A DNA stretch of 47,628 nt, taken from a virus. The translations under genes were made by a program, and so were the position numbers. The stretch spans positions 1 to 47,628 of IMG/VR virus record IMGVR_UViG_3300025141_000169, one strand, 5' to 3'. The notes under the pieces are model-generated. The model saw nothing but the letters and a program-made list of their open reading frames with translations, did not search any database and was not told the origin of the DNA. Shown here piece by piece: positions 4,632 to 23,759 of this stretch; position 1 is the first letter of the stretch, and every line of letters begins with the position of its first letter.

Positions 4632-4674
4632 TTAATAAATAACTCCTCACTATTAAATAGTTTGTATAAAGAAG

Positions 4675-4700
4675 AACCCCCGGCCCTAAGACCGGGGGTT
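4675..4700 (-). terminator. Strong intrinsic terminator after the major capsid gene
   Basis: A perfect 9-bp stem (AACCCCCGG at 4675-4683 pairing with CCGGGGGTT at 4692-4700) encloses an 8-base loop. On the minus strand the hairpin is followed by CTTCTTTATA, a T-rich tail; on the plus strand it is followed by CCAATTTTT, so it could also stop leftover plus-strand transcription. It lies 37 bases past the capsid stop codon in the only clear gap of the left half. It probably sets the 3' end of the abundant capsid mRNA and lowers read-through into neck genes. Confidence 0.85.
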
Positions 4701-4737
4701 CCAATTTTTACGCTATGTTATTGTAAAAACAACCAGA

Positions 4738-6579
4738 TTAACCAGTCATGTTCTCAACAACAACAACGCCGTACATATCAGGACGAACCATCTTCTTGGC
4801 GTAGCGAGTCAACACGCCCTTGCGGGGCACGAAGTCTTCCACACCAAAGATAGTTGGCGTAACCTGCAGTGGCACGTATGGAGCGTATACGAAGCCGCTT
4901 TCAAGGAAGCTATTGCCTCTGCGGCCAACCAAGACCACAGAACGCGGGAAGTAAGGATCAACGTAAACGTCGAACTTCTTACTCATAGAGCCAACCTTAG
5001 CCGCACCAACACTATTGCCCTTAAGCTCATCAGCGCTAATCGTTGCACGGAAGCCAGAGGTGAACTCAAGCAAATTGGCAACTTCTGGCGAGCAAACAAC
5101 AAAGTTCGCGCCGCCACGAAGCGTCTTACGATGAATACGAGCCGACACATCATTGATGGTTTCAGCAAGAGTCTCATACCACTCACTAACCGTACCGGTG
5201 AAGTCCGGTGGCGCTGTAGCCGATGCCAAGTTGACACCAGTTTCGCGATTCACAAACTTACCGGGTCGGCGTGACCAATAAAGACGGGCGCCGGTGGCAC
5301 CCTTGAGAAGATCCTCAAGAATCTCCTGATCAATCTCAAGCGCAATCTGCTCAGACAAAATGCTCGTAAGCTCGACTTCGGCGTCGAGATTGTGATAAGC
5401 ATTCAAATCCTGAGCAAGCTCTGGCGACCACTTCGCCTTGAGCTTCTTGGTCTCTGCCGTAACGCTGATCGAGTCAACCTGAATGTCGATCTCGGGGATG
5501 ACGAAGTTCTGGCCAGCCAGACCAGTGTGGGTCGATGACCCCACGCCGTCGCCGGCGCCTTCGTCCCAGAGATCCAAGTCGAGAGCACCGATCGAAGTTG
5601 TATTTGCATTTGCAAGATCTGCGCGTGACCATGAACACCCCGAATTCGTGATACCTCGCGTTGTGATAGCGCGAGATGAATAGTCGTTCGCCGCATCAGT
5701 ACCGAAATTGGTAATGATAGACTGGGTAGAACTGTAAAGAACAAAGATAACCTTACTCCTATCAGCCGGATCGAGCTTGGTTAAGCGACGAACGGTTGAT
5801 ACGGTCTGCGCACCGCTGGTGCCGGCTCCACTAATCTCCGAAACGTCCATAGCAATAAGATCATTAACACTAGAATTAGTGAAATCAGTCAATGTGCCGC
5901 TAGCGGCAACATAGTAATTGGTACCATCATTCGTCACATCCGGATCCCAACTCAGAATGCGCAACGAAGGCTCATCAGTAATTGCGTTACCCAGCACGCC
6001 AGCGCCACCACCTATGCCTGCTGCTTGTGCAGCGAGCACACCATCGTAGGAAACGTGAGGTTGCAACTCGATCTTCGCGACATTCGTACCAGAAGGCGAA
6101 GAATAGGCGTTATTCAAGCTGTAAAAACTAGTTTCAGCATTGGCGCCACCAAGGTTAACACCACCAGTAATATCAGCACCACGAACGGCGCCACCATAAA
6201 TTGATTGGCCGGCCGTTGCGCCGGCGTACTCGCGAGTGTTAGCAAACGTAAAGTCCAAGAAGAAGATGAGGCCCGAGGGCAAACTCATCGGCTGGACTGA
6301 AACCAATTCGTTGGCAATTAAGCCACCGAATACACGACGGACGATCGGAAACGCGACGGCTGCGAAGCCCTCAACATCACCAGCACTCATCGTGCTTGCT
6401 TCACGAAGAAGCTCTTTTGCTTGATTCTCAAGCAACCGCGCCATACTCTGTCGAGTGCGCTCATTGTCAAGTCCTTCCAAGAGGCCGGTCTTTTCCCACT
6501 TATTCAGTAGGGCAGCACCTTCCTTCTGGAGGTCGCGACTGACAATATTTTTTGTTAAACTTTCAACTATTGTAGACAT
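4738..6579 (-). CDS. Major capsid protein, gp23-like
   Basis: The main shell protein, 613 residues against 521 in T4 gp23. Recognisable segments are LLNKWEKTGLLEGL (24-37), MARLLENQAKELLRE (46-60), FPIVRRVFGGLIANELVSVQPM (77-98) and KLKAKWSPELAQDL (379-392) followed by ELTSILSEQIALEIDQEI. All align with T4 gp23. ELLRE/A at 56-61 fits the L/I-x-E rule of the gp21 protease and lies near the T4 maturation site (E65/A66), so cleavage after E60 is predicted. The extra length sits mainly between about residues 130 and 360, where T4 phages carry the exposed insertion domain. The gene is GC-richer than its neighbours, has an ideal ribosome site and ends at a terminator, as expected for the most abundant product. 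Confidence 0.95.
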   Translation of the reverse strand: MSTIVESLTKNIVSRDLQKEGAALLNKWEKTGLLEGLDNERTRQSMARLLENQAKELLREASTMSAGDVEGFAAVAFPIVRRVFGGLIANELVSVQPMSLPSGLIFFLDFTFANTREYAGATAGQSIYGGAVRGADITGGVNLGGANAETSFYSLNNAYSSPSGTNVAKIELQPHVSYDGVLAAQAAGIGGGAGVLGNAITDEPSLRILSWDPDVTNDGTNYYVAASGTLTDFTNSSVNDLIAMDVSEISGAGTSGAQTVSTVRRLTKLDPADRSKVIFVLYSSTQSIITNFGTDAANDYSSRAITTRGITNSGCSWSRADLANANTTSIGALDLDLWDEGAGDGVGSSTHTGLAGQNFVIPEIDIQVDSISVTAETKKLKAKWSPELAQDLNAYHNLDAEVELTSILSEQIALEIDQEILEDLLKGATGARLYWSRRPGKFVNRETGVNLASATAPPDFTGTVSEWYETLAETINDVSARIHRKTLRGGANFVVCSPEVANLLEFTSGFRATISADELKGNSVGAAKVGSMSKKFDVYVDPYFPRSVVLVGRRGNSFLESGFVYAPYVPLQVTPTIFGVEDFVPRKGVLTRYAKKMVRPDMYGVVVVENMTG

Positions 6580-6586
6580 TTTTTTT

Positions 6587-6592
6587 CCTCCT
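6587..6592 (-). promoter_or_regulatory. Consensus Shine-Dalgarno site of the capsid gene
   Basis: On the minus strand AGGAGG is followed by seven A residues and then the capsid ATG at 6579. This is a full consensus site with ideal spacing in an unpaired A-rich context. It directly follows the scaffold stop codon (TAA, 6596-6594). It supports the chosen capsid start and very high translation. Confidence 0.75.
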
Positions 6593-6593
6593 T

Positions 6594-7850
6594 TTAGTTA
6601 ATAATGTCAATTCCTGCCAATCGTTTCATTCGCGCAGCAAAAGGATCCTTTTCAGGTTCTTTAGCTTTTGGATTACGAACTAACAATTGTGAAGAACGTC
6701 GTGAAACTGCCTCACCCAGCGATTCCGGACCTCTTGAACGAGTTACCTGCACTGTGTTTTTTAACGTGTCATACACGATCTTCGCTTGTTCCACACTTTC
6801 AGTTTTTTCTAGACTTTCGACAATTCTATCTTTCTGTCGTCTATTAAGAGATCGGTCAGACAAAACCTTATTTGTGTAGAGCATCTTAACGTTCATTAAT
6901 TGAGACTCTTCAAATTTCTCTTTGAGTCCATTAAAGCCCTCAATTAATGTGTTATATTGCTTTTTAAAATCATTAAATGTTTTCTTACTCTCTTTGAGAG
7001 CTACATTTAATGATTTATTCTTTTGAATTAGTAAATTGTTTTTCTTTACTAATGATTCGTTCTTTTTTTCAAGATCTTCGGCTTCTTCAACCATCTGGGC
7101 TAGCAACAAATTTATGCTACTTTGCTCATCAGAGGTGCCGAAAGAGTCATTTGTTTCTTTGGCATATTTGTAATCTACCTTAATGCCTTCTTCTACATAC
7201 TTATCATCTTCTTCAACTTCTTCTTCGTCATCATCGTCGTCGTCTTCTTCATCGTCGTCTTCGTCGTCGTCTTCTTCATCGTCGTCTTCGTCTTTCCCAG
7301 TAGCAGAGCTAAGTCCCACCAGCTTGTCTTCGTCAATGGCGGCTTCGGCCAGCATGTTATCATCCAAATCAAGAAGCTCTTCGCCAAGCAACTCTTCCAA
7401 CAAATCCTCTTCTATTTCCAGAGACTCGGCAAGGTTGCGCGCTGTTGGGCCACGATCTGGATCCATTTCATAATCATTTAGGGCATCTAAATTAATAGTA
7501 ATTAATTCGCCCTCTTGTGGGTATTCTGTATATCCAATGGTCGCACCATCTAAAGCCGCATATTCAACCTTGCTTGGCAAATGATCTTTATCTTCGCCGG
7601 TTGCAGCGAAATCAACAGGCGTTGGTGCGGGGCCGGTGGCTGTGGCGGCTTCGTCGGCGCCTAAATCCATACCACCGCCTGCTCCAAGATCGGCACCCAA
7701 ACCAGCAATATCTTCTTGCTCCAGCAATTTTTCCATTTGGTTTTTAATTTCACCTGAATATTTTTCAATAATAAGATGCTCTGCATTGCGAACTGCTGCG
7801 TCTTTTAACGACTTGGCGTCTATTATAGCCTGCTCTAACATTGATGACAT
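6594..7850 (-). CDS. Prohead core scaffolding protein, gp22-like
   Basis: A 418-residue internal scaffold on which the capsid shell assembles before it is cut up by the protease. It has an N-terminal helix (MLEQAIIDAKSLKDAAVRNA), a Gly/Asp-rich stretch with LGADLGAGGGMDLGAD, several L/I-x-E sites, an extreme Asp/Glu run of about 30 residues (encoded at about 7199-7290 by GAA/GAT-type repeats), then about 140 residues of coiled coil, and a C-terminus RMKRLAGIDIIN like the T4 gp22 end. T4 gp22 has 269 residues; the surplus is mostly the acidic region. It lies immediately upstream of the capsid gene, as gene 22 does in T4. The family call is strong from architecture and position. Confidence 0.85.
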   Translation of the reverse strand: MSSMLEQAIIDAKSLKDAAVRNAEHLIIEKYSGEIKNQMEKLLEQEDIAGLGADLGAGGGMDLGADEAATATGPAPTPVDFAATGEDKDHLPSKVEYAALDGATIGYTEYPQEGELITINLDALNDYEMDPDRGPTARNLAESLEIEEDLLEELLGEELLDLDDNMLAEAAIDEDKLVGLSSATGKDEDDDEEDDDEDDDEEDDDDDDEEEVEEDDKYVEEGIKVDYKYAKETNDSFGTSDEQSSINLLLAQMVEEAEDLEKKNESLVKKNNLLIQKNKSLNVALKESKKTFNDFKKQYNTLIEGFNGLKEKFEESQLMNVKMLYTNKVLSDRSLNRRQKDRIVESLEKTESVEQAKIVYDTLKNTVQVTRSRGPESLGEAVSRRSSQLLVRNPKAKEPEKDPFAARMKRLAGIDIIN

Positions 7851-8150: not shown

Positions 8151-9014
8151 CTATAAAATAGCCACGCTGCCGTTTACGTTCCATCGATCTAACACTGCCA
8201 TTTGTAATCTGCTCATTTCACCGTCAGTTAATCCCCTCATAATTGCAATGGCGCAGCCTATACTTCCGTTCCAGAAAAGGCTTGAATTGCCTCTTGATCC
8301 CAAATGAAGCTTTTTAGTCTGATTAAACGCGTCGGTGATATTAAGGGCCGTTGTCGAATACAAGTCAGCGGCCGGAACATGGGCGCCGTCGATGTAGGTT
8401 TTGGATCCATTATCTACTCCGACGCCGACGCCGTTGGCATTAAACACCGCGCCGCCGGCGTAGGGCTGGCTGCAATCCATATACGCGGGTTTCGTTGCTG
8501 AAACATTATAAGGGGAATTCCCTAGAGCGTAGTAGCTTTGATAATTTGCGTTCGAAGGATCGTCTCCCATTACAAAAGTGCCGGCGTTTGAGTTATAAGT
8601 TGGAGAAAGCTCTAAAATATTGCCCCACGCGTCGGTATTATGTTTTGAAAAGAAAACAATGCTTAAATCTTTTATGCCGTTTAATTGTGCTTCGGCCGCG
8701 GCGCCACGCATGAATTGCTCGCCGACCCACGCGGTTACTCTTTTGCCGTTATAAACACCAAGCTTGGGCGCATCGTCGACTTCGGCTTCCTCAAAGTTTG
8801 TAGCCCAGACACCCCAAGCATCGCCCCAAGTTGTTACTGCGGAGCCAGATGCGATATCATTAATAGAAAGCGCATCAACACAGAAGAGAAGATCGTCGCC
8901 TGCTATCGATCTAACTAAATTTAAAAAATTGCTGCTTTTGTCTGCAGGGCGGATTTTGCCAGCGGATCTAGCTGATTTGGTACCATGTCTGCCGCCGAAA
9001 CCACTTCGCTGCAT
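8151..9014 (-). CDS. LamG / concanavalin-like domain protein, possible capsid decoration
   Basis: A 287-residue protein. After about 40 basic, Gly/Arg/Ser-rich residues it has a beta-sandwich pattern typical of LamG-like lectins: FCVDALSINDI, TTWGDAWG, KDLSIVFFSKH, a Gly/Asn/Tyr-rich middle, then KLHLGSRGN, FWNGSIGCAIAIMRGLTDGEMSRLQ. Such domains often bind glycans. It lies between a beta-rich 148-residue gene (TAATG overlap) and the scaffold, where capsid decoration proteins often occur, so display on the head surface is a reasonable inference. The basic N-terminus could be the capsid anchor. No catalytic motif is seen. Confidence 0.6.
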   Translation of the reverse strand: MQRSGFGGRHGTKSARSAGKIRPADKSSNFLNLVRSIAGDDLLFCVDALSINDIASGSAVTTWGDAWGVWATNFEEAEVDDAPKLGVYNGKRVTAWVGEQFMRGAAAEAQLNGIKDLSIVFFSKHNTDAWGNILELSPTYNSNAGTFVMGDDPSNANYQSYYALGNSPYNVSATKPAYMDCSQPYAGGAVFNANGVGVGVDNGSKTYIDGAHVPAADLYSTTALNITDAFNQTKKLHLGSRGNSSLFWNGSIGCAIAIMRGLTDGEMSRLQMAVLDRWNVNGSVAIL

Positions 9015-9460
9015 TAACCTATACCCGTATTACCGGACCAATTTGTCCAGCCGCCGACAGACTCAACAGGAATGCCAGTTAAGCCAGCAACAACAGAGGC
9101 TGAAGTCTGTGCTGCTGTGTCGGCCAATAAAAACACAGAGCCAACGCGCCATTCTCCCGTATAAGACTCGCCATTATCTAAGACAACGTAATTTTGGGCG
9201 GCTGCAACAGTGCCACTAACTCCAATAGAGCTAAACCCAAGCCTTAAAGCCGAATTGGCGCCGATATTTGTGTTTGTAACAGTTACAAATTTAGTTATAT
9301 TGTAAAAGTCATATTCATCTGGTGCATTTCCCAAGGCCGGCACAGTAATTGACGAACTAGCCCATGGAATAGCGCTTGATTGATATTGCCCTACCGACCC
9401 TAGGCCCGGTGTATAGACTTGGAATCTGCCATCTGCATAACTTGTATTTTCAATTCCCAT
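9014..9460 (-). CDS. Beta-rich unknown, candidate head decoration protein
   Basis: A 148-residue protein rich in Gly, Ser, Ala, Val and Thr with alternating strand pattern (ITKFVTVTNTNIGANSALRLGFSS, NYVVLDNGESYTGEWRVGSVFLLAD). No cysteines, signal peptide or membrane helix are seen. The ATG has GAGGT eight bases upstream, where the bS21 gene ends. Its stop overlaps the LamG-like gene start by one base, so the two are probably made together. The composition is that of a virion surface protein; function is not established. Confidence 0.6.
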   Translation of the reverse strand: MGIENTSYADGRFQVYTPGLGSVGQYQSSAIPWASSSITVPALGNAPDEYDFYNITKFVTVTNTNIGANSALRLGFSSIGVSGTVAAAQNYVVLDNGESYTGEWRVGSVFLLADTAAQTSASVVAGLTGIPVESVGGWTNWSGNTGIG

Positions 9461-9463
9461 TTT

Positions 9464-9679
9464 TTACCTCGATCTCTTTTCTTGTTGTAACTTCTTAATT
9501 AGTTTCTTTCTTCTAATTTTTTCTCTTCTTCTTTTAACTGAGGGCTTTTCATAATACATGTTTTCACGATATGTTTCTAAAATGCGCTCCTTCTTCACCT
9601 TTTTATTAAATTTTCTAATAAGCACCTCAAGTGGTAAATTATTATAATTTTTTACTTCTACATTTATTGGTCTTGCCAT
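9464..9679 (-). CDS. rpsU: Phage-encoded ribosomal protein bS21 homologue
   Basis: A 71-residue, strongly basic protein with the full bS21 pattern: VEVKNYNNLPLEVLIRKFNKKVKKERIL, then YYEKPSVKRRREK and a Lys/Arg-rich helical tail. Bacterial bS21 is about 70 residues and carries the same xEPxExALRRFKRxxxKxGxL and FYEKPsxKRKR segments. bS21 sits on the 30S subunit near the anti-Shine-Dalgarno region and acts in initiation. The phage copy could replace or outcompete the host protein on ribosomes. It starts after GAGGTTAAA, within the head operon between a core-type gene and decoration genes, so it would be made late. Identity is firm; the effect on translation is inferred. Confidence 0.87.
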   Translation of the reverse strand: MARPINVEVKNYNNLPLEVLIRKFNKKVKKERILETYRENMYYEKPSVKRRREKIRRKKLIKKLQQEKRSR

Positions 9680-9686
9680 TTTAACC

Positions 9687-10082
9687 TCAAATTAATTTGC
9701 TCCAATTACCCATGCCGGGAATATTAGCAATATCAACACCAGAATCATTTGGATCCACGTCTGCCATTGAGCCACCTTGTGGTGATCCATTGGCCTCAGT
9801 CTCAGTAAAAGCGCTTGTTCCCTCAAAAAGATCAATTCCCCCATAAGCACCTGATCCGATAGCGCCCAGCAATTGTTTCTTTTTATCTTCAATTTGTTTG
9901 TTTGGAGGCTTTCTCTTTGGGCTCTTTTTCTGCTCAACAATTGGTTGTGGGGCGACTTTTCCAGAAGCCCCCCTAATTGATTCTGAAATAATTGTAGAAA
10001 GAACGCCGTCTTCAAAGATAATTTCTTTGATGCATTCTTTAATTAATGGCTTGAGCATTTTTTTTAATTTTTGCTCTTTCAC
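9687..10082 (-). CDS. Unknown prohead-region protein, possible core component
   Basis: A 131-residue protein starting at GTG 10082 with AAGGAAG eight bases upstream; the GTGA junction overlaps the protease stop. The N-terminus is an amphipathic helix (KKMLKPLIKECIKEIIFEDGVLSTIISESIRG) followed by a basic Pro/Lys linker and a Gly/Asp/Asn-rich tail ending GMGNWSKLI. Its place next to the prohead protease matches the small T4 core genes 67 and 68, and it has IFE and other L/I-x-E sites. I know no function for this family; core or chaperone roles are inference only. Confidence 0.6.
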   Translation of the reverse strand: MKEQKLKKMLKPLIKECIKEIIFEDGVLSTIISESIRGASGKVAPQPIVEQKKSPKRKPPNKQIEDKKKQLLGAIGSGAYGGIDLFEGTSAFTETEANGSPQGGSMADVDPNDSGVDIANIPGMGNWSKLI

Positions 10083-10684
10083 TTTTTTTCTTCCTTTAGA
10101 ATACTATTAAGTACCCTATTAATCCGATCTGCTTTTGTAAACACGGAGTTTTCTTTTCCTTCACGAAGCATATAAGCCCCGGTTGTTGAGGGTTCTGAAA
10201 CCAAATCAAAACAAATTAATTGAAAATCATCCTCTACATATGTTTTGCCGTTCTCTTCGCGAGTTGAGCCAAGACCACGAGATGAAATGCCCAATTTAAC
10301 GCCGCCGCGAAGCAATTCTTTAACTGTCTTGCCCGGGCCCGTTTCTAAAATGCGCACTTTTCCAACAACACTGTCGCCTTGCATGGCGATTTGAGTAACC
10401 AAGTGTGAAACGTTCTTTAGCTCAACAACTGAACTTTCAGGGTGATCTAATTCACCAACTGCTCGACCTTCTCTAACAATTTTTTGATAATTTTCAACTT
10501 CTCTTTCTAAAATATCTCGCGAATAAACTCTTCCATTGCCATTTAACGAATCTGCCCTTTGCATGACGCCGGCCAAATAAACCTCGTCACCCTCGTCCAT
10601 CAGCTTTTGTTCTTTTTCAGTAAGAAGCTCACGATCCATTGAAAGTTCTAAAAATTCAGTTAAAATGAGCTTATTTGACATCAT
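10079..10684 (-). CDS. Prohead maturation protease, gp21-like
   Basis: A serine protease of the herpes-assemblin-like clan that cuts scaffold and capsid proteins inside the prohead, 201 residues (T4 gp21: 212). The fold markers are in order: VYLAGVMQRADSLNGNGRVYSRDIL (36-59), GELDHPE with likely catalytic His81, VSHLV (92-96), VVGKVRILETGPGK (107-119), and KLGISSRGLGS (130-140) with the nucleophile serine in the ISSRG motif, followed by FQLICFDLVSEPS. The start overlaps the 74-residue gene's stop (TAATG); a second ATG lies one codon in. Cleavage after L/I-x-E is the known T4 specificity and fits sites in several proteins here. Confidence 0.93.
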   Translation of the reverse strand: MMSNKLILTEFLELSMDRELLTEKEQKLMDEGDEVYLAGVMQRADSLNGNGRVYSRDILEREVENYQKIVREGRAVGELDHPESSVVELKNVSHLVTQIAMQGDSVVGKVRILETGPGKTVKELLRGGVKLGISSRGLGSTREENGKTYVEDDFQLICFDLVSEPSTTGAYMLREGKENSVFTKADRINRVLNSILKEEKK

Positions 10685-11857: not shown

Positions 11858-12681
11858 TAACTTTTTATTTCCTTAACAAGCTGCTGCATCTTTAAAATCA
11901 GAGCAAGACCCTTTTCATTAAGGGGGCCCCTTTGTTTAAAAGAATCAACCACTTTCAAAACCTTCTTGCTGTTCTCCAGCATAATCTTGTCTTCTTTAAT
12001 TTCTTTTGTCTTAAAAGACTCGACAACAATATCACGAATTCTTTCTAGCTCTTCATTAATAAAAACCTTTAATTCAGTGTCTTCCTCAAAAGAAGATGAA
12101 ACAAACTTAGATAAAAGGGCCCTTTGCTCTTTTAACAAGCCCCCATAAATTTCGTTGAACTTTTTAGCAAAGGCTCGGACAACAAATTTGTCTATCGGCC
12201 TTTTTGTTTCTTTGGCCTTTTCTTTTTTGGCAACCATGCTTTCAACAATCTTGCGCTCCATCAAGACGCGCTCTTTAATGTTTGTTTCATCCATTTTAAA
12301 AAAATTATATATCATGGCTAGAGACTTATAGTTTGGAACAAATTTAGTAAACACTTCTGGGGTAATCTCATGATTAACGTGATGAATGGCAGCAGTTTGA
12401 GCATCATAAAGCTCTTTTTGGTCAAAAGTTGAATAAACTCTACGAACTTCATATAAGATTTTTTCAGCAGTTAAATAATCAACTTCCTGAGTTTCCAATA
12501 GAGTATTATAAAGTCTCAATTCTTTTCCTAAAATAGTGCCCCTAGAGAAAAGACTTTTGATTGTTTCTTGAATTCTTTTCTTTTTGTTTTCTTCTTTATT
12601 TAATGAAACAACTGTTAATTCTCTTATAAGCGCTTCATAAACAAACGCAACATTTCTCTTTTTATTGTGTCTGAATTTCAT
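11857..12681 (-). CDS. Conserved helical unknown downstream of the portal
   Basis: A 274-residue, Lys/Glu-rich, almost wholly helical protein. It starts MKFRHNKKRNVAFVYEALIRE and contains long amphipathic stretches (ERVLMERKIVESMVAKKEKAKE, VFINEELERIRDIVVESFKTKE). I chose ATG 12681; a TTG one codon upstream also keeps the frame. The start lies inside the end of the portal gene (20-base overlap), indicating coupling to portal synthesis. In T4 the place after gene 20 holds core genes 67 and 68, but I see no direct similarity. A scaffold or core component is the simplest guess. Confidence 0.65.
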   Translation of the reverse strand: MKFRHNKKRNVAFVYEALIRELTVVSLNKEENKKKRIQETIKSLFSRGTILGKELRLYNTLLETQEVDYLTAEKILYEVRRVYSTFDQKELYDAQTAAIHHVNHEITPEVFTKFVPNYKSLAMIYNFFKMDETNIKERVLMERKIVESMVAKKEKAKETKRPIDKFVVRAFAKKFNEIYGGLLKEQRALLSKFVSSSFEEDTELKVFINEELERIRDIVVESFKTKEIKEDKIMLENSKKVLKVVDSFKQRGPLNEKGLALILKMQQLVKEIKS

Positions 12682-14629
12682 CAATTATTTTCTCCGCTTC
12701 ATCAACTATCTTATTCCCTTCTTCAGTTAATGATGTCAACTGAGATTCTAAGTTACTATAAATAGTTTCTTTTGATTCTACAATACCTCTTGCCAAGCGA
12801 TCTAAGTGGCGCGACTTTCCGGACAGGTGTTTATAATGCTTGCCTTTCCCGGCAGTCTTGCGACCATCTTTAAACGATGGGACGGGCTTATACCGCTTTT
12901 GTTTGCCCTTCCCAACATATATTTCACTGCCGTCATCAAACGTCATTTTAACAGGGCGCGTGCCGTCGTCTCTTTTTGCTGCACCGGGCTCTGTTAATAA
13001 GGGTGTCGTTTCTTCTTCAGCGGCAGGTATCGCTTCGGCTGCAGCCTCGCCACCCAGTTCAGCACCAAGGTCGCCACCAAGTTCAGCGCCAAGTTCGCCA
13101 CCCAGTTCAGCACCAAGTTCGGCGCCGGCTTCTGCTCCGGATGGGCCTTCAAACATCGGCTCTTGAGCAACCGCCTCAAGGGCAGTATCCATCTTCTTAT
13201 CAAAGAATCTTTCACGCTGACACCGTAGAAATTCTTCATGGGGCATACTAAATATATTTTCTGCAACCCACCGACGACTGAAATAAACGTCTTGTGCTGA
13301 GCCTGCTGTGTCCATCTTTGTCTTCAAGAACTCCAGTTCTTGTAAAAGTGCCAATTTAGACGGATTATTTAATTGCAAATCAAACGAAATAATGTCATCT
13401 CCTCTATATCCCAATGTATAAAGGTGGATAATTCCAATTTTTTCTAACTCCGCTACGACAGCCCTTTGTAGACGCTGAACTGTGCGAGAAAAACGAATGT
13501 CTTTTTGAGCCAAAGTTGTTTTATCTTCGGGCACAGAGTCTTGTTGTGAAAGATATGCTTTTGGAATCTTAATAGCTGAAAAAAGCTTATCTCTTAAATA
13601 ATTGACATCATCAATTGCGGCTGCATTTTGACCACCGGGAAGGGAAACAATATCAGTCATGGATCCCTGTCGTACGGGCAAATAATAATCCTCTTCCACG
13701 CTCATTGGATTATAGCGAAGATCAATTCTGCCATTGTCCTCGTTCACAACTTGATGCCGCTTCATGGTAGTGATGATTTTTTGCATATAAGGCTCAATAT
13801 CTTCAGGTGGAATTCCCCCCACATCAATTTTAAAAATTCTTCTTTCGGGCGCCCTGACAATTCTGTAAGCCATCATTGCATCTTCCATAAGAGTCAGTTG
13901 GCGCCAAATTCGTCGGGCCGGCTCTAAAACTGAAGTGCCATAAGGAGCATATTTATCATTTCCAAGAATTCTAAAATGAGCCATTTGCCAATTTTCAAAA
14001 GTCATCCCCCCAGAATTCCATTGATATTGAACATAGTTGGGGTTGCTATCATCTTCGCCCTCTAATCTTTCAATTTCTCTAGTTGGCAAGCCAATAACAG
14101 AAGTGATCCCAAGCTTTTCATCAATATCCAAATATAGAAAATAATCACCATATTTACACATATTGCGACACCAACTATACATATTTGAATTTAAATTCAA
14201 AACATTAAAGAACAATTCTTCCAAAATTGCCTTAATTTCTTGATTTGGGCATTTGATATCTAGTAAAGGATTCAATAAATTATGAGTTGTCATTTCATCC
14301 GCATAAATGTCCATTGCGGAGGCCAATTCTGGCGTATACTCCATCTGATCAAAGTCTAAATAGCGCTCACCGCGGTTGTGATTAACCATAATTTGGCTGT
14401 TCATATAATTGTAAGGATTATAGTTTGACTTTTTGAAATCTAATCCCGATAAAGATCGAAATCGTTTTGAATATTTATCTAAATTCCTGCGTCGATCAAG
14501 TGCAATGCTTTTAGATTTATAATTTACAATTGGCCCCGAAAAAAGCCTCGTAAGTGCTTTAAAAAGCGGAGATATTTCATTACGAGGATTTCGTGCACCA
14601 CCCCTTACTCTTCTTGTATTTATAGCCAT
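12662..14629 (-). CDS. Portal vertex protein, gp20-like
   Basis: Forms the dodecameric ring through which DNA enters and leaves, and which nucleates the prohead. It has 655 residues (T4 gp20: 524). Portal markers are YLDFDQMEYTPELASAMDIYADE, NMYSWCRNMCKYGDYFLYLDI, QMAHFRILGNDKYAPYGTSVLEP, WRQLTLMEDAMMAYRIVRAPERRIF, and KIPKAYLSQQ followed by ALAQKD-type helices. Unlike T4 it has a C-terminal extension with an eight-residue repeat of the type GAELGGEL (encoded at 13047-13118), then a basic KGKQKRYKP region and a helical end. It starts 2 bases past the terminase stop. The extension's role is unknown. Confidence 0.94.
   Translation of the reverse strand: MAINTRRVRGGARNPRNEISPLFKALTRLFSGPIVNYKSKSIALDRRRNLDKYSKRFRSLSGLDFKKSNYNPYNYMNSQIMVNHNRGERYLDFDQMEYTPELASAMDIYADEMTTHNLLNPLLDIKCPNQEIKAILEELFFNVLNLNSNMYSWCRNMCKYGDYFLYLDIDEKLGITSVIGLPTREIERLEGEDDSNPNYVQYQWNSGGMTFENWQMAHFRILGNDKYAPYGTSVLEPARRIWRQLTLMEDAMMAYRIVRAPERRIFKIDVGGIPPEDIEPYMQKIITTMKRHQVVNEDNGRIDLRYNPMSVEEDYYLPVRQGSMTDIVSLPGGQNAAAIDDVNYLRDKLFSAIKIPKAYLSQQDSVPEDKTTLAQKDIRFSRTVQRLQRAVVAELEKIGIIHLYTLGYRGDDIISFDLQLNNPSKLALLQELEFLKTKMDTAGSAQDVYFSRRWVAENIFSMPHEEFLRCQRERFFDKKMDTALEAVAQEPMFEGPSGAEAGAELGAELGGELGAELGGDLGAELGGEAAAEAIPAAEEETTPLLTEPGAAKRDDGTRPVKMTFDDGSEIYVGKGKQKRYKPVPSFKDGRKTAGKGKHYKHLSGKSRHLDRLARGIVESKETIYSNLESQLTSLTEEGNKIVDEAEKIIDEIQTQ
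13047..13118 (-). repeat. Three 24-bp tandem repeats inside the portal gene
   Basis: Three near-identical 24-base units (13047-13070, 13071-13094, 13095-13118) encode an acidic Gly/Ala/Glu/Leu octapeptide repeat in the portal's C-terminal extension, with a decayed partial unit beyond. The period is a multiple of three, so copy number can change without breaking the frame. Confidence 0.85.
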
Positions 14630-14631
14630 AA

Positions 14632-16209
14632 TTATCCTTTAAACAGCCAAGAAAAATCTGTATATTTTTTCTTTTCAGCAGGCAAGCCGGTTTCTTGGCG
14701 ATACCCTTCTTGACCATGTATTTTAGTGTGAAAAACCTTTCCATCGGTCGAAATTGCGTCGACAAGGGCGCGCCTATATTCCATTTCTCGTTGATTAACC
14801 ACCAAAGCTGTATCTCTCACCCAACAAGCAATTGCACACGACATGACCAAATCATCATTATAGCTTCTCATGGCTTCGGCTTTGCCGTTATTCCAAATAA
14901 AGGTTTTAAACTCATTGGCGAGTCGTTTCGAATTTATTGTAATTAGTTTATTCCTAATGAATTCTTCTAATTTTGCAATTATTAAAGGCCTATTTCTCGA
15001 AGATATAGTAACCCCAGCTATAGAATTAGAAAGATTCTGAGCTTCAAATTGATCAACGTGTATATTGGTGGATTTCACTGAATAAAACAGATTGGGATGT
15101 TGCATATCTACCAACTTATTTAAAGCCGCCAAACCAATTGAGTTGTTTTCGACAACCGTTAAGCAAAATCCATATTCTTTGCTAGCATCATAAATTGTTT
15201 GTGCATACATATCAATATTTGCCTTTCCTTGATATTCTGCAACCTGCTCCATTGTCTCAGAATCAAAAATATGAAAAGCTGAAAAATCTTTGCCGTCGCC
15301 TCTAGCAACATCAGCAACAAGAAAGTATTTTTTTCCCGGCTCATAATTTTTCCAAATCCAAAAATTACGATCATAGCCCGTTTTATATTGTGGCTCACAA
15401 CATTCTTTTTGAAGCCTTTCTAGGTCATCGCCATGGAGCAAAGTTTCACCTGAAAAGTTAAAATTACATTCAAGTTCTTGCGCGATTTCCCGCGAAGACA
15501 TGTTTCTGGTTTCCTTTTTAAACCACGCGTCGTCTCTTTCCGGATGAACGCTCCATGGCAACTTCATAGAGTTAAAGTCATTTTTTTCCTCTTCTGCTTC
15601 TGTATAAGTTCGATGAAACCAATTACCAACACCATAAGGAGTGCTTACTGCGATACAGCGGCCGCCAGTAGATAGCGTTGGATATAGGCCGGCCCAGAGT
15701 TCGTCCATTCCTTCAATAATGGCCGCCTCATCCACAATCAAAAGAGTTAATGCCTCTGAGCGGCCGGCGTCGGTGGCCGTTGATGATGCTTTTATCTGAG
15801 AATTGTTTGATAGCTCAAAAGAGCCCCTATTATCAATTGTTATTTTTGAAATTAAAAGCCAAGATGGCAAGCTCTTTATAATAAGCTTTACCTTCTTAAC
15901 CAAATTTGTTGCTGTAGCTAGTTTAGTCGCAACAACAAGAATATTCTTATCGCGATGAAACAACATTAACCATGCAGTATATGCAGCGATTGTAGTTGAA
16001 ATTCCAAGCTGCCTTCCTTTTAATATTACATTAAAACGATAATTGTTAAAATCTTTTATGGTATCTTCTTGAAAGTCATATAATTTAAAAGGAATCAGCC
16101 CTTTTAAGGGATGGGAAATTTTAGCAAACGTGTTGATAAAATAGCCCGGGCTTTTGCCACACTTAATAATTTCTTGAACTATTTCTTGTTTGGTTAATCG
16201 ATAGGCCAT
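14632..16209 (-). CDS. Large terminase subunit (packaging ATPase-nuclease), gp17-like
   Basis: The motor that pumps DNA through the portal and cuts concatemers, 525 residues (T4 gp17: 610). The ATPase has a Q-motif region at LYDFQEDTI (43-51), Walker A KGRQLGIST (64-72) and Walker B LLIVDEA (156-162) with catalytic Glu161, followed by CIAVSTP coupling motif (185-191). The RNase H-type nuclease has VADVARGDGKDFS with Asp300, an acidic TVVENNSIG segment and NDDLVMSCAIA near the C-terminus. All key residues are present. It lies immediately upstream of the portal gene, whereas T4 has 17 then 18, so gene order is altered here. No separate small terminase is recognisable. Confidence 0.95.
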   Translation of the reverse strand: MAYRLTKQEIVQEIIKCGKSPGYFINTFAKISHPLKGLIPFKLYDFQEDTIKDFNNYRFNVILKGRQLGISTTIAAYTAWLMLFHRDKNILVVATKLATATNLVKKVKLIIKSLPSWLLISKITIDNRGSFELSNNSQIKASSTATDAGRSEALTLLIVDEAAIIEGMDELWAGLYPTLSTGGRCIAVSTPYGVGNWFHRTYTEAEEEKNDFNSMKLPWSVHPERDDAWFKKETRNMSSREIAQELECNFNFSGETLLHGDDLERLQKECCEPQYKTGYDRNFWIWKNYEPGKKYFLVADVARGDGKDFSAFHIFDSETMEQVAEYQGKANIDMYAQTIYDASKEYGFCLTVVENNSIGLAALNKLVDMQHPNLFYSVKSTNIHVDQFEAQNLSNSIAGVTISSRNRPLIIAKLEEFIRNKLITINSKRLANEFKTFIWNNGKAEAMRSYNDDLVMSCAIACWVRDTALVVNQREMEYRRALVDAISTDGKVFHTKIHGQEGYRQETGLPAEKKKYTDFSWLFKG

Positions 16210-19151: not shown

Positions 19152-22100
19152 TCACTGATTAACGTAAGCATACCCGTTTGGTACTTTTGTAATATCAATT
19201 GTCATATCAACCACATCTTTAAGACTGTCTACATGAGTAATTAGTAGGGTGATATTGAAATAACTTTTAATCAAATCCAAGATACGTACAAACCCTTCCA
19301 TGTTATCTGCATCCAGTGAAGTTCCCGGCTCATCCAAAATAAAAATGTTGCTTTTGGGCATATTTGAAACGTTTAATAGCGCAATACGAATGGCTATCGC
19401 GGCCAAAGTCTTCTCTGCTCCCGACCCATTCTCCAGTGGTCGCGATTCATGCTTGGGGTGCTTAATTAAAATGTCCAGTTTGTTATCGGTGTTCTCAAAA
19501 AAGACTTCGAATTCAACCACATTGGCCAGAACCTTGCTGATCTCTTCATTAATGACAGGAAGGCCCTTCTTGATTAGGTCAAAAGAGATCCCTCCACTGT
19601 GCATACAGCGCATAAAAAGGTCATAAGCCGAATATTCAATGCTCAGCGCCTCTTTTTCTTGCTTTTGTTCTTGCAGGTTCTTTAATTTTTGTTCGGTGGC
19701 GCCCTGTTGGCCCACCAACTCCAGTATTTCGGCATTGCACGACTCCAAACAGTGAGTTAAACTATGAACTTCTTTCTGTTTTTCGTCGCGCTGCCTTACA
19801 AGCCCATTGTAATCCTCGATGGCCTCTTTATTTTCGTTATAATAGCCAATCTTCTTCCGATATTCGCCTATTGCAACCTCTGAAGTTTGTATTTTATTGG
19901 TATTTCGTTCAATTTCCAGCCGCAATCTTGTCTGTTCTTGTTGAGAAGCGTCCTTTTTATTAACCAGCTTCTCATAATTGTCCAAATGACGATCAATTGC
20001 TTTAGGGTCCAGTTCTTTAATTTCATTTTTAATGTTGGTTTCCTGATTTTGAAGCGCTTCAATCATTTTTTCGACGACATCTATCTTTTGAGATGCCCCA
20101 TATGCCTCTTTAATAAATTGACAGCTAGTAACATAAGACTTTCCACAAGGAATCGCATCCAAAGTCTTTACTTGATTATTAAAAATCTGGAATGTCTTTT
20201 GTTCATCCAAAATTTGTTGAGCCAGTTCCTCCAAATGCTTAAGTTTTGATGCTTCTATGGTCTTTTTTCTTTTTAAGTCCTCAATATCAAAATCACGCAA
20301 GAATTCCTTGGCCTTTTCAATAAAAGCGTTGTTTCTCCCCACCTTGGCCTTCAAATTACGACTATTTCTTTTTAAATCGGAGATTTGGCCCCTTGTTTCC
20401 TTTAAAGTTGCCTTTAGATCTTCAATGTTTATGGGTTCTGCCGGCACAGCGTCAATTTTGTCATTAAAGTCCTTTAAAGCGGCCTCGATTTCATGAAGGG
20501 CGGCTTGAAGGTCGGTACACTCATTCTTTTTCTTCAAAGAGTTGGCTTCGGCAACAAAAATATTATTTTTGGCCTCCTTAATCTCTTCATCGAACTCTCT
20601 TCCTTCCAGCCGGCGCAATGCTCCGCGCAAATCCATGGCGTCTTCTTTGGCCATCTTAAATTTCTTTTCAAAAAACTCTAAATCAAGAAATTTAGCTAAA
20701 ATTTCCTTACGTCTTGTAGAGCCTTCGTTAATAAACTGTAAGGCGCCTGCCTGAGAGGACATTGAGGTCATTAAGAAGTCTTCAAGGGGGCCGAACTTGC
20801 TGCGAATGTTCTTCTCAGTCCCTCCGCGCTCAGTGGCGTTGTGACTTAAGATTTCTCCCGAAACATGGTCCACCGATTCAAAATCTAAGGTTGTTTTAGC
20901 CTCGTCCGTAACTTTGCCTTTAAGTTTCTTAACGTACTTATCCGATCTCCTAGTAATCTTGTAAGTTTTATTATTCGCCTCAATCTCCAAGTAACCAGAT
21001 CCATACTCTTTATGCTCATTAATGATATTGAACGTCTTTCTAATGTTCTTAGAGGTGTTATTATACATTGTGTAGAGTAAACTATCAATAATGCTTGACT
21101 TGCCACTGAAATTTTTACCAAATATTCCAACAATCCCAGACAATTTAGCAAAATCAATAGCGTTATCCTCCGCATAATTAAAAAGATTGTTCCACTGCAG
21201 TTTTTTAACCTTCCAATGCACATTGCGCGATAGATCCTCTGTTGCTTCTACGAGCCTATTGTACTTAGCATTAAGTTCAAAGACCCCTTGAAGAGTTTCA
21301 GTGTCCGGACTGTAGTCTTTTAAATACTCTTTAATTAGCTCCTGCTGAATCTTTTCATCTCTTAGGTTTTCCTTAATTGCGGCGTCGACCTTATCTTCAA
21401 TGTTTGAATCCAAGAGACTTCCCTTGTTTAAGAAAGTAACGCTTTCTGGCTTAAATCGACTTTTTGCAATATCAACTGCTTTCCGAAGCTTTTCAAGAGG
21501 AATGTTACTCTGGGAAATCAATCGTAGTCGTGCATTAGGAGGGCACGTGAATTTATTTGGTATGCGGCCCGTTTTAGTAAGATAGACACTTATAAAGGGC
21601 TTCGGATTTTGAAAAATAGCCCGCTCACAAGTAAAATTTCCCTTACCTTCAATATCCCATAGTAAAATACCCTTATCTACGTCTTCTCCAAAGTTCTGTT
21701 GAATGGTTGAGCCGGGATAAGCCACCGTTCCTGCGCTATTTAACACCTGTGGCTTGTGAATATCGCCCAAAAAAGCATAATCAAAGTCATCAAAAATGTT
21801 AATTTCATGATCTGTCTCGCGCATTACCCACCCGATGTCCGTTTTGCACTCATAAATGGATCCATGATAGGCCGCAATGTTAATTTTAGTAGGATCGGAG
21901 GGCTTTGTCCAGCTTTCTTCATCAAAAACCGACAAAACGTTCAAACAAAACTCGTTATTAATGTGTACCTCCCCAGAATTCTTACATAAATGAAGATTTG
22001 GATGATTCAAGGCCCTTGTAATGGGTGAAATTGCATCTTGACGATAAGAATTCCTTAAATTTCCATCATGGTTGCCCAAAACAATATAGGTTGGAGCAAT

Positions 22101-22307
22101 ATCAGCCAAATTTTTAAGAAAATCAGAGCACATTTGCACGAATTCGGGTGAAATTTGCGTTTTTGTGTGTGCAATATCACCACAATGAACAATACAGTCT
22201 ACTTTTTCTTCTCGCAGGGTGGTGTATAACTGTTCAAAAACCGCCCTATATTCTTTATGATATTTTAAATTGCGAATGTGCGTATCTGCTATGTGAGCAA
22301 ACTTCAT
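19152..22307 (-). CDS. Single-chain Mre11-Rad50 (gp47-gp46 / SbcD-SbcC) fusion
   Basis: A 1051-residue recombination nuclease joining two subunits that are separate genes in T4 and E. coli. The N-terminal phosphoesterase has IADTH (D8, H10), CGD (D44), LGNHD (N79, H80), YHG (H148) and GDIHK (H184). A linker leads to the ABC ATPase: Walker A GKNFSGKSS (397-405), a long coiled coil broken at 721-729, signature ENGSGAEKT (959-967), Walker B IFILDEP (988-994, E993), D-loop SLD and H-loop THVD. All catalytic residues are present. The hook apex has C721-x7-C729 instead of the usual C-x2-C. It probably resects DNA ends for recombination-dependent replication. It follows the primase gene by 7 bases. 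Confidence 0.92.
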   Translation of the reverse strand: MKFAHIADTHIRNLKYHKEYRAVFEQLYTTLREEKVDCIVHCGDIAHTKTQISPEFVQMCSDFLKNLADIAPTYIVLGNHDGNLRNSYRQDAISPITRALNHPNLHLCKNSGEVHINNEFCLNVLSVFDEESWTKPSDPTKINIAAYHGSIYECKTDIGWVMRETDHEINIFDDFDYAFLGDIHKPQVLNSAGTVAYPGSTIQQNFGEDVDKGILLWDIEGKGNFTCERAIFQNPKPFISVYLTKTGRIPNKFTCPPNARLRLISQSNIPLEKLRKAVDIAKSRFKPESVTFLNKGSLLDSNIEDKVDAAIKENLRDEKIQQELIKEYLKDYSPDTETLQGVFELNAKYNRLVEATEDLSRNVHWKVKKLQWNNLFNYAEDNAIDFAKLSGIVGIFGKNFSGKSSIIDSLLYTMYNNTSKNIRKTFNIINEHKEYGSGYLEIEANNKTYKITRRSDKYVKKLKGKVTDEAKTTLDFESVDHVSGEILSHNATERGGTEKNIRSKFGPLEDFLMTSMSSQAGALQFINEGSTRRKEILAKFLDLEFFEKKFKMAKEDAMDLRGALRRLEGREFDEEIKEAKNNIFVAEANSLKKKNECTDLQAALHEIEAALKDFNDKIDAVPAEPINIEDLKATLKETRGQISDLKRNSRNLKAKVGRNNAFIEKAKEFLRDFDIEDLKRKKTIEASKLKHLEELAQQILDEQKTFQIFNNQVKTLDAIPCGKSYVTSCQFIKEAYGASQKIDVVEKMIEALQNQETNIKNEIKELDPKAIDRHLDNYEKLVNKKDASQQEQTRLRLEIERNTNKIQTSEVAIGEYRKKIGYYNENKEAIEDYNGLVRQRDEKQKEVHSLTHCLESCNAEILELVGQQGATEQKLKNLQEQKQEKEALSIEYSAYDLFMRCMHSGGISFDLIKKGLPVINEEISKVLANVVEFEVFFENTDNKLDILIKHPKHESRPLENGSGAEKTLAAIAIRIALLNVSNMPKSNIFILDEPGTSLDADNMEGFVRILDLIKSYFNITLLITHVDSLKDVVDMTIDITKVPNGYAYVNQ

Positions 22308-22314
22308 ATAAACC

Positions 22315-23256
22315 TCAAATCATTAATGCGGAAAAAAGAGCCATTGTATCATTTGTAACCAACTCTGCCGCATTTTTTCTACGTTGGAACTCAAACTTGC
22401 TCATTGAGCCAACATCCTCATAGCCCTGTGTGTCTATTTTACACACTTCTACCCCATAAAGCAAGAACTTTTGTATTAAACGCAAGGATTTTTTCTCAGC
22501 ATCAACATCCAAAGCCACATAAACCTTGGAATCGTGTTCCAAGATCTCCTTAAAAAGGACAGCCTCTTCATTTAATGTTGACCCTAACAGCGGAATGGCA
22601 TTTTGTCCCACTGTTACAGCATCAAAAGCGCCCTCTACCAAAACCACGTCTTCATCAAAATCCACAAACAATTCATTAAATACAATGTCTCGCGATACAT
22701 TGGGATTTTTATATTTTAAGCGGGAATTCCGGTCATAAGATCGAGCAATAAAATAATTTACATCGCCATTTTTGTCAAAAGAAGGAATAATAATTCTATC
22801 TTTGTATTCTCCAACAGCACAATATCCCATTTTCCAATATAAGATATCAGCAGTGTCGATTCCCCTTCTCTTTAAATAAGATATGGCTGGCAACGCTGGT
22901 GAAGCCCGGACCTTGTTTGTTAGGGTCCTAAATTCTTTTGGTAAATTAATTTTTATTTTTTCTTTTTTTTCAGCTTCATCAAACAAATCTTCTAAAACTG
23001 AAGAGTGGTCAACAATATTACAAAGTAATCGCCACTGCCTTTTGTGGTCGAAGGTTCCGCATCTTCGAATAAGCCTCATAATGGACCTACCAGAATAATC
23101 ACAGACCCAGCACTTAAACTTGTCTTTTTCTAAATTTATCGATAATTTTTTTTTGTGATGCTTACATATGGGGCAATAAAAAAGATACTCATCGTTACTT
23201 GTACGATAAGTGCCTAAAACATCATATAAAATCTCTAATTTTTTTCTTGTTGACAC
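22315..23256 (-). CDS. DnaG-type DNA primase (gp61-like)
   Basis: Makes RNA primers for lagging-strand synthesis; 313 residues, similar to T4 gp61 (342). A zinc-binding domain has C28-x2-C31 and C49-x2-C52 (YCPIC ... CWVCDYSG). The catalytic core includes SYLKRRGI, RIIIPSFDKNGDVNYF, and a TOPRIM domain with VLVEGAFDA (E208) and ALDVDAEKK (D250, D252). It begins at GTG 23256, inside the end of the RuvC-like gene (22-base overlap), with no clear ribosome site, so translation is probably coupled. No helicase domain is fused. The replicative helicase must lie outside the window. Confidence 0.9.
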   Translation of the reverse strand: MSTRKKLEILYDVLGTYRTSNDEYLFYCPICKHHKKKLSINLEKDKFKCWVCDYSGRSIMRLIRRCGTFDHKRQWRLLCNIVDHSSVLEDLFDEAEKKEKIKINLPKEFRTLTNKVRASPALPAISYLKRRGIDTADILYWKMGYCAVGEYKDRIIIPSFDKNGDVNYFIARSYDRNSRLKYKNPNVSRDIVFNELFVDFDEDVVLVEGAFDAVTVGQNAIPLLGSTLNEEAVLFKEILEHDSKVYVALDVDAEKKSLRLIQKFLLYGVEVCKIDTQGYEDVGSMSKFEFQRRKNAAELVTNDTMALFSALMI

Positions 23257-23759
23257 TGCAAATAACCAGTACGAGCAATAATATAACTGTCTGCTCTATC
23301 ATAACTTCCCGCCTTTGGGTTGTTACTCCTAGTATATTGTACCTCAAATCCAACTACATTGTCAAGCACATGCTGAAGGACGATTTCTTTGGCTTTTTGG
23401 CCTCTTTGTATTTTTAAACCGCATATTTTTCTTGCTGATGGGGCTGAAATATATTCTGGTGGAGTCCCAAATACATCATAACACAACCAACTCACCACTC
23501 CATTAAATTTTGAAAGAAGTGTGAGCGTTTTAGCCGATGAAAAGCCCGCTCTAAACATTTGTAAAGATTGTTCAATTACAATTCTATTAATAGGAAAGTC
23601 TGCCCTTACATCCATTAAGCGGTGTTTAATGTTGGTCGCTTTATCAAAAAAGCTTTTAATTTTACGAGTATCCCACGCCTCACAGAAAACAACATTGCCA
23701 CTATCGTCTATTACAGTTGCGCCCGTAATGCTCGTTGAAACATCAAGTCCAAGTATCAT
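23235..23759 (-). CDS. RuvC-like Holliday junction resolvase
   Basis: A 174-residue RNase H-fold nuclease that resolves four-way junctions or branched DNA before packaging. The four acidic positions of the RuvC site appear: D6 in LGLDVSTSITG, E63 in RIVIEQSLQMF, and D154/D157 in SYDRADSYIIA. PSARKICGLK followed by GQKAKEIVLQHV is also RuvC-like. T4 uses the unrelated gp49 for this step, so a RuvC-type enzyme marks a different lineage. It starts at ATG 23759, overlapping the upstream structural gene's stop by four bases. Confidence 0.85.
   Translation of the reverse strand: MILGLDVSTSITGATVIDDSGNVVFCEAWDTRKIKSFFDKATNIKHRLMDVRADFPINRIVIEQSLQMFRAGFSSAKTLTLLSKFNGVVSWLCYDVFGTPPEYISAPSARKICGLKIQRGQKAKEIVLQHVLDNVVGFEVQYTRSNNPKAGSYDRADSYIIARTGYLQCQQEKN

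What the first reader, a model, noticed from the sequence alone, without database searches (positions are those of the whole stretch)
9464..9679. Ribosomal protein bS21 encoded inside the capsid operon
The 71-residue protein has the complete bS21 signature and basic tail. Phage-encoded bS21 has been reported in environmental phages. Here it lies among head genes rather than early genes, so it would accumulate while capsid mRNA, with its full-consensus AGGAGG site, is translated. A late ribosome specialisation for Shine-Dalgarno-led virion mRNAs is a testable idea.
Basis: partly seen in the sequence, partly recalled or inferred. Interest (0 to 1): 0.7.

Follow-up and report, generated by a model that had tools for sequence, protein, structure and literature searches.

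The report
Phage ribosomal protein among head genes
This environmental T4-like phage carries a genuine gene for a small bacterial ribosomal protein (bS21) inside its block of virus-head genes, an arrangement and a late-infection role already described for phages, and the added idea that it favours Shine-Dalgarno-led head messages is not supported by the sequences.

Summary
[quoted passage not shown] The MCP does have a full AGGAGG site. In IMG/VR relatives chosen by their protease, bS21 sits between protease and MCP, same strand, in 56 of 68; dN/dS is mostly below 0.2. It is a core, selected gene of an unclassified T4-like lineage, not a stray acquisition. The isolate Microcystis phage Mel-JY01 has RpsU in the same slot. 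Late expression with head genes and ribosome re-tuning toward phage mRNAs were published by Chen et al. 2022 (PMC9723584), and phage bS21 incorporation into ribosomes by Mizuno et al. 2019 (PMC6375957). SDs are used genome-wide, not only on late genes. Late genes of the same block such as terminase lack them. bS21 presence and SD use dissociate in distant relatives. The unusually strong, conserved capsid SD is real, but a simpler cause (very high capsid demand) suffices. Host unknown: phage bS21s form their own group apart from bacterial ones. Verdict: new member of a known kind.

The parts
9464..9679 (-). bS21 (rpsU-like) gene, 71 aa
   Evidence: AlphaFold model with three helices whose best PDB match is E. 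coli bS21 4ybb_AU (weak, E=0.15)
9685..9688 (-). GAGG Shine-Dalgarno of bS21, overlapping the stop codon (TGA 9687-9689) of the upstream gene
   Evidence: sequence, (dG -6.3)
9687..10082 (-). p131: conserved unknown protein just upstream; adjacent upstream ORF in 49 of 55 bS21+ relatives with a match
   Evidence: no Pfam or PHROG match
9014..9460 (-). p148: unknown protein 3 bp downstream of bS21, often conserved next to it
10079..10684 (-). prohead protease (gp21-like, Peptidase_S77)
   Evidence: E=6.7e-25
12662..14629 (-). portal protein (gp20-like)
   Evidence: E=8.2e-76
14632..16209 (-). terminase large subunit; no Shine-Dalgarno
6594..7850 (-). 418-aa protein in the scaffold (gp22) position before the MCP
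   Evidence: position only; conserved there in relatives
4738..6579 (-). major capsid protein (gp23-like)
   Evidence: phrog_138 E=5.5e-69
6587..6592 (-). AGGAGG Shine-Dalgarno of the MCP
   Evidence: dG -11.8, strongest of the window's genes
4673..4702 (-). intrinsic-terminator-like hairpin (13 pairs, 9 G-C) after the MCP, probable end of the head transcript

Best explanation
A functional phage bS21, inherited as a core gene of an unclassified T4-like lineage, is translated from the late head-gene transcript. Made in bulk late in infection, it exchanges with or supplements host bS21, which is loosely bound on the 30S platform near the anti-SD, and keeps or tunes initiation on phage mRNAs in general rather than on SD-led head mRNAs in particular. 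Shown here: identity, position, packing, conservation, purifying selection, genome-wide SD use. Inferred: late timing (from the operon), incorporation into ribosomes (shown elsewhere for HTVC008M bS21 in E. coli) and any effect on initiation.
For: Pfam and PHROG matches; PDB bS21 chains by profile. Gaps of 7 and 3 bp, SD overlapping the upstream stop, no strong terminator on this strand between bS21 and the MCP and one just after the MCP. 56 of 68 relatives chosen by protease carry bS21, all 56 on the same strand, 39 of 39 with an MCP have it between protease and MCP; 3 more have a clear divergent copy. dN/dS 0.03-0.29. bS21 and protease divergence correlate (Mantel rho 0.28, above all 500 permutations), so inheritance is at least partly vertical. 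Late transcription of phage bS21 with head genes in other phages (PMC9723584); stable incorporation of HTVC008M bS21 into E. coli 70S (PMC6375957).
Against: No expression or proteomic data for this phage. Chen et al. found no single operon in their phages, where bS21 lies on the opposite strand. Ribosomes with HTVC008M bS21 gave about 5% of normal in vitro translation in an E. coli system, which fits impairment as well as re-tuning. The vertical signal is weak.
Confidence: 0.7

Rival explanations
1. One reading: phage bS21 specialises late ribosomes for strong-SD virion mRNAs, above all the capsid mRNA.
For: Capsid SDs of this lineage are unusually strong: median -8.9 kcal/mol over 47 distinct upstream regions, 17 with AGGAGG, against a median of -5.1 in 13 other T4-like phages sampled. 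Relatives lacking bS21 (L158, L162/L163, immuto) have weaker capsid SDs (+2.0 to -4.3; L157 -6.8).
Against: SD use is genome-wide, with no rise in the head block. Terminase and portal in the same block have weak SDs. The capsid SD ranks only 6th of 137, 27th of 142 and 13th of 130 genes in three relatives. bS21+ LR756508 avoids SDs; LR756511, without bS21 near its head genes, uses them. The bS21-less relatives differ in GC and probably host, and are few independent lineages.
Confidence: 0.12
2. Phage bS21 mainly shuts down or slows host translation by displacing the host protein.
For: HTVC008M bS21 cut in vitro translation to about 5% in E. coli ribosomes.
Against: Late, head-linked position is a poor time for shut-off, and the phage itself needs maximal translation then. 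The in vitro effect may be a species mismatch, as the authors say.
Confidence: 0.1
3. bS21 is packaged in the head (or acts in head assembly) and is delivered to act at the start of the next infection.
For: Co-location with head genes; proposed in PMC9723584; small basic protein.
Against: No data; conserved ribosome-binding signature and constraint are explained by ribosomal use.
Confidence: 0.06

Closest known systems
bS21-encoding Bacteroidetes myophages of Chen et al. 2022 (PMC9723584)
   Same: bS21 among terminase, portal, protease and capsid genes; late role proposed; preferential translation of phage mRNA proposed
   Different: There bS21 is on the opposite strand, not in one operon, and keeps an aromatic residue at the Tyr54 position that helps hide the anti-SD. 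Here it is on the same strand, tightly packed, with Lys59 there, and the phage uses SDs.
Microcystis phage Mel-JY01 RpsU (PP395634)
   Same: T4-like isolate with RpsU on the same strand in the same slot, protease - unknown gene - RpsU - ... - capsid
   Different: 32% identical in sequence; in the tree its bS21 falls with bacterial ones on a long branch
Pelagibacter phage HTVC008M / pelagimyophage bS21 (PMC6375957, PMC7029224)
   Same: Myovirus bS21; shown to enter E. coli 70S ribosomes
Cellular bS21 (rpsU)
   Same: Core motif, length, basic C-terminal helix
   Different: All but one of the phage sequences form a separate group (99/89 support)

Membership tests
Ribosomal protein bS21 (PF01165) | Profile match above the curated cut-off over the whole domain | tested here: met
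   44.7 bits vs 27, profile 3-52 of 55
Ribosomal protein bS21 (PF01165) | Helical fold of ribosomal bS21 | tested here: inconclusive
   Three helices, pLDDT 80 but pTM 0.36; best PDB match is E. coli bS21 but E=0.15
Ribosomal protein bS21 (PF01165) | Incorporation into the 30S subunit | not testable with these tools
   Shown only for HTVC008M bS21
Head-linked late phage bS21 (Chen et al. 2022) | Located within about 10 genes of head genes | tested here: met
   Two genes from the protease, in the capsid block; 56/68 relatives
Head-linked late phage bS21 (Chen et al. 2022) | Transcribed late with structural genes | not testable with these tools
   Inferred from operon packing only
Bacteroidota-type anti-SD-hiding bS21 | Aromatic residue at F. 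johnsoniae Tyr54 position | tested here: not met
   Lys59 in the window; 57 of 66 distinct phage copies have Arg/Lys, 3 are aromatic or His; the Bacteroidota control Thermonema has Tyr

The most novel reading that the evidence does not exclude
In this SD-using T4-like lineage the phage bS21 and the exceptionally strong capsid SD have co-evolved, so that ribosomes carrying phage bS21 initiate preferentially on extended-SD capsid mRNA late in infection.
Probability: 0.1. Interest if true: 0.65.

Novelty: new member of a known kind. Interest (0 to 1): 0.3.

Why it matters
It shows that head-operon bS21 is not limited to the Bacteroidetes phages in which it was described: an SD-using T4-like lineage keeps it in a fixed slot under strong constraint. 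Because this lineage uses SDs and lacks the anti-SD-hiding residue, any ribosome effect here cannot be the Bacteroidota anti-SD mechanism, which makes it a useful contrast for experiments on what phage bS21 does.

Tried and rejected
tblastn of bS21 in the phage collection gave nothing, probably because the K/R-rich protein is masked as low complexity (Mel-JY01, which has one, was missed). So absence of bS21 from the 13 control phages was not proven genome-wide: their 3.7-4.6 kb capsid stretches were fetched only for the capsid upstream sequence and annotated features. Host by bS21 phylogeny: nearest cellular hits spread over many phyla and phage copies group apart, so no host call. A locus in an Acidiferrobacteraceae MAG (L177) proved to be a relative of this phage, most likely binned with the MAG. 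T4 late-promoter motif TATAAATA: one site on the coding strand, inside the portal gene, so no late promoter was identified. Rfam and tRNA searches of the window: nothing. Bacteroidota anti-SD mechanism rejected.

Full report
Observation. The gene is real: window 9464-9679, minus strand, 71 aa, Pfam Ribosomal_S21 E=1.1e-11 and PHROG 'ribosomal protein S21' E=2e-8. By profile it matches bS21 chains of many solved ribosomes. It is the only bS21 in the 47.6 kb record, an IMG/VR virus fragment.

Setting. On the minus strand the order is terminase, portal (gp20-like), unknown genes, protease (gp21-like), p131, bS21, p148, p287, a 77-aa ORF, a 418-aa protein in the scaffold position, capsid (gp23-like), 423-aa head-tail adaptor-like protein. 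bS21 starts 7 bp after p131, its GAGG overlapping the p131 stop, and ends 3 bp before p148. The terminator scan lists a strong hairpin on this strand just after the capsid gene (4702-4673) and, between bS21 and the capsid start, only one weak site inside p148 (9089-9073); such scans are not evidence of function. Co-transcription with the capsid gene, and so late timing, is an inference from this layout.

Relatives. The closest isolates by terminase are only about 42-43% identical: Flavobacterium phage immuto and Microcystis phage Mel-JY01. immuto has no annotated bS21 in this block; Mel-JY01 has an annotated RpsU in the same slot and strand. To avoid choosing relatives by bS21 itself, I collected 79 further loci by the protease. 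Of 68 with enough downstream sequence or a bS21, 56 carry bS21, all on the same strand; wherever a capsid gene is also present (39) bS21 lies between protease and capsid. A rebuilt profile finds a divergent copy in three of the other twelve (L129, L139, L140) and a marginal one (E=0.046) in L144, L146 and L147; L157, L158, L162 and L163 show none. Some loci are near-copies; 47 distinct protease sequences, window included, underlie the bS21+ set. dN/dS between close pairs is 0.03-0.29. bS21 distances follow protease distances weakly but beyond 500 permutations (rho 0.28, largest permuted 0.22). In a tree of 95 short sequences, all phage copies except Mel-JY01's fall on one side of a branch with 99/89 support, bacteria on the other; with 56 columns, inner order is unreliable. 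The protein therefore gives no host.

Shine-Dalgarno test. Upstream 20-mers were paired with the anti-SD (ACCUCCUUU). In the window 64% of genes reach -5 kcal/mol against 13% at internal ATGs; three long bS21+ relatives give 58-67% against 16%. The signal is spread over the whole genome with no rise in the head block. Across relatives the capsid site is the strongest of ten head-block genes (median -8.9; 17 of 47 with AGGAGG) while the terminase has essentially none (median -0.6). In 13 other T4-like phages the capsid site has median -5.1 (range -2.4 to -8.8). So a strong capsid SD is a real trait of this lineage. It does not track bS21 in the wider sample: LR756508 has bS21 (Pfam E=4.7e-10), though 11 kb after the protease, and avoids SDs; LR756511 shows no bS21 near its head genes and uses them. 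Within the lineage the clearly bS21-less G012 has weak SD use (30% against 17%), but it has 53% GC, may have another host, and with its kin counts as very few independent events. Start codons in these counts were chosen by rule (first ATG), which adds noise to all genes alike.

Anti-SD contact. In Bacteroidota, bS21 Tyr54 helps hide the anti-SD (PMC9723584; mutants in PMC9976891). The window has Lys59 there; 57 of 66 distinct phage copies have Arg or Lys, and the Bacteroidota control Thermonema has Tyr. Together with SD use this speaks against a Bacteroidota-type mechanism and, less strongly, against a Bacteroidota host.

Prior knowledge. Chen et al. 2022 (PMC9723584) reported bS21 among head genes, late co-expression with them, head genes near bS21 in 388 of 900 published genomes, and proposed substitution into ribosomes to favour phage mRNAs. 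Mizuno et al. 2019 (PMC6375957) showed incorporation of HTVC008M bS21 into E. coli 70S, with translation reduced to about 5% in vitro. Pelagimyophages carry S21 as a core gene outside any specific cluster (PMC7029224). What this window adds is a second, SD-using T4-like lineage in which bS21 is a same-strand, tightly packed member of the head operon, conserved in place.

Verdict. New member of a known kind. The general late-ribosome idea is published and plausible; the SD-specific version is unlikely on present evidence but directly testable.

Noticed in passing
window 4738-6579: The capsid protein (613 aa) matches capsid profiles only at 32-102 and 350-596, suggesting an inserted stretch of roughly 200 aa relative to gp23-like proteins.
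   Followed up: no
window 6587-6592 and the same site in relatives: Capsid Shine-Dalgarno is exceptionally strong and conserved in this lineage, while the terminase lacks one.
   Followed up: partly
window 19152-23759: SbcC-like, primase-like and RuvC-like genes lie between the baseplate/tail genes and the terminase block.
   Followed up: no
window 33401-42052: 2883-aa ORF without any Pfam match, next to baseplate genes; homologues in relatives are split or shorter.
   Followed up: no
window 14632-16209: Terminase is at most about 43% identical to any phage isolate in the collection, so the lineage looks unclassified.
   Followed up: partly
L177 (PBOB01000007.1): A relative of this phage sits in an Acidiferrobacteraceae MAG, probably by binning; a possible but unproven host hint.
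   Followed up: partly
L144, L146, L147 (e.g. L146:6632-6940): Possible very divergent bS21 (E=0.046) close downstream of the protease, with a changed central motif.
   Followed up: partly
window 9687-10082: p131, unknown, is the adjacent upstream ORF of bS21 in most relatives; a candidate partner or head-core protein.
   Followed up: no
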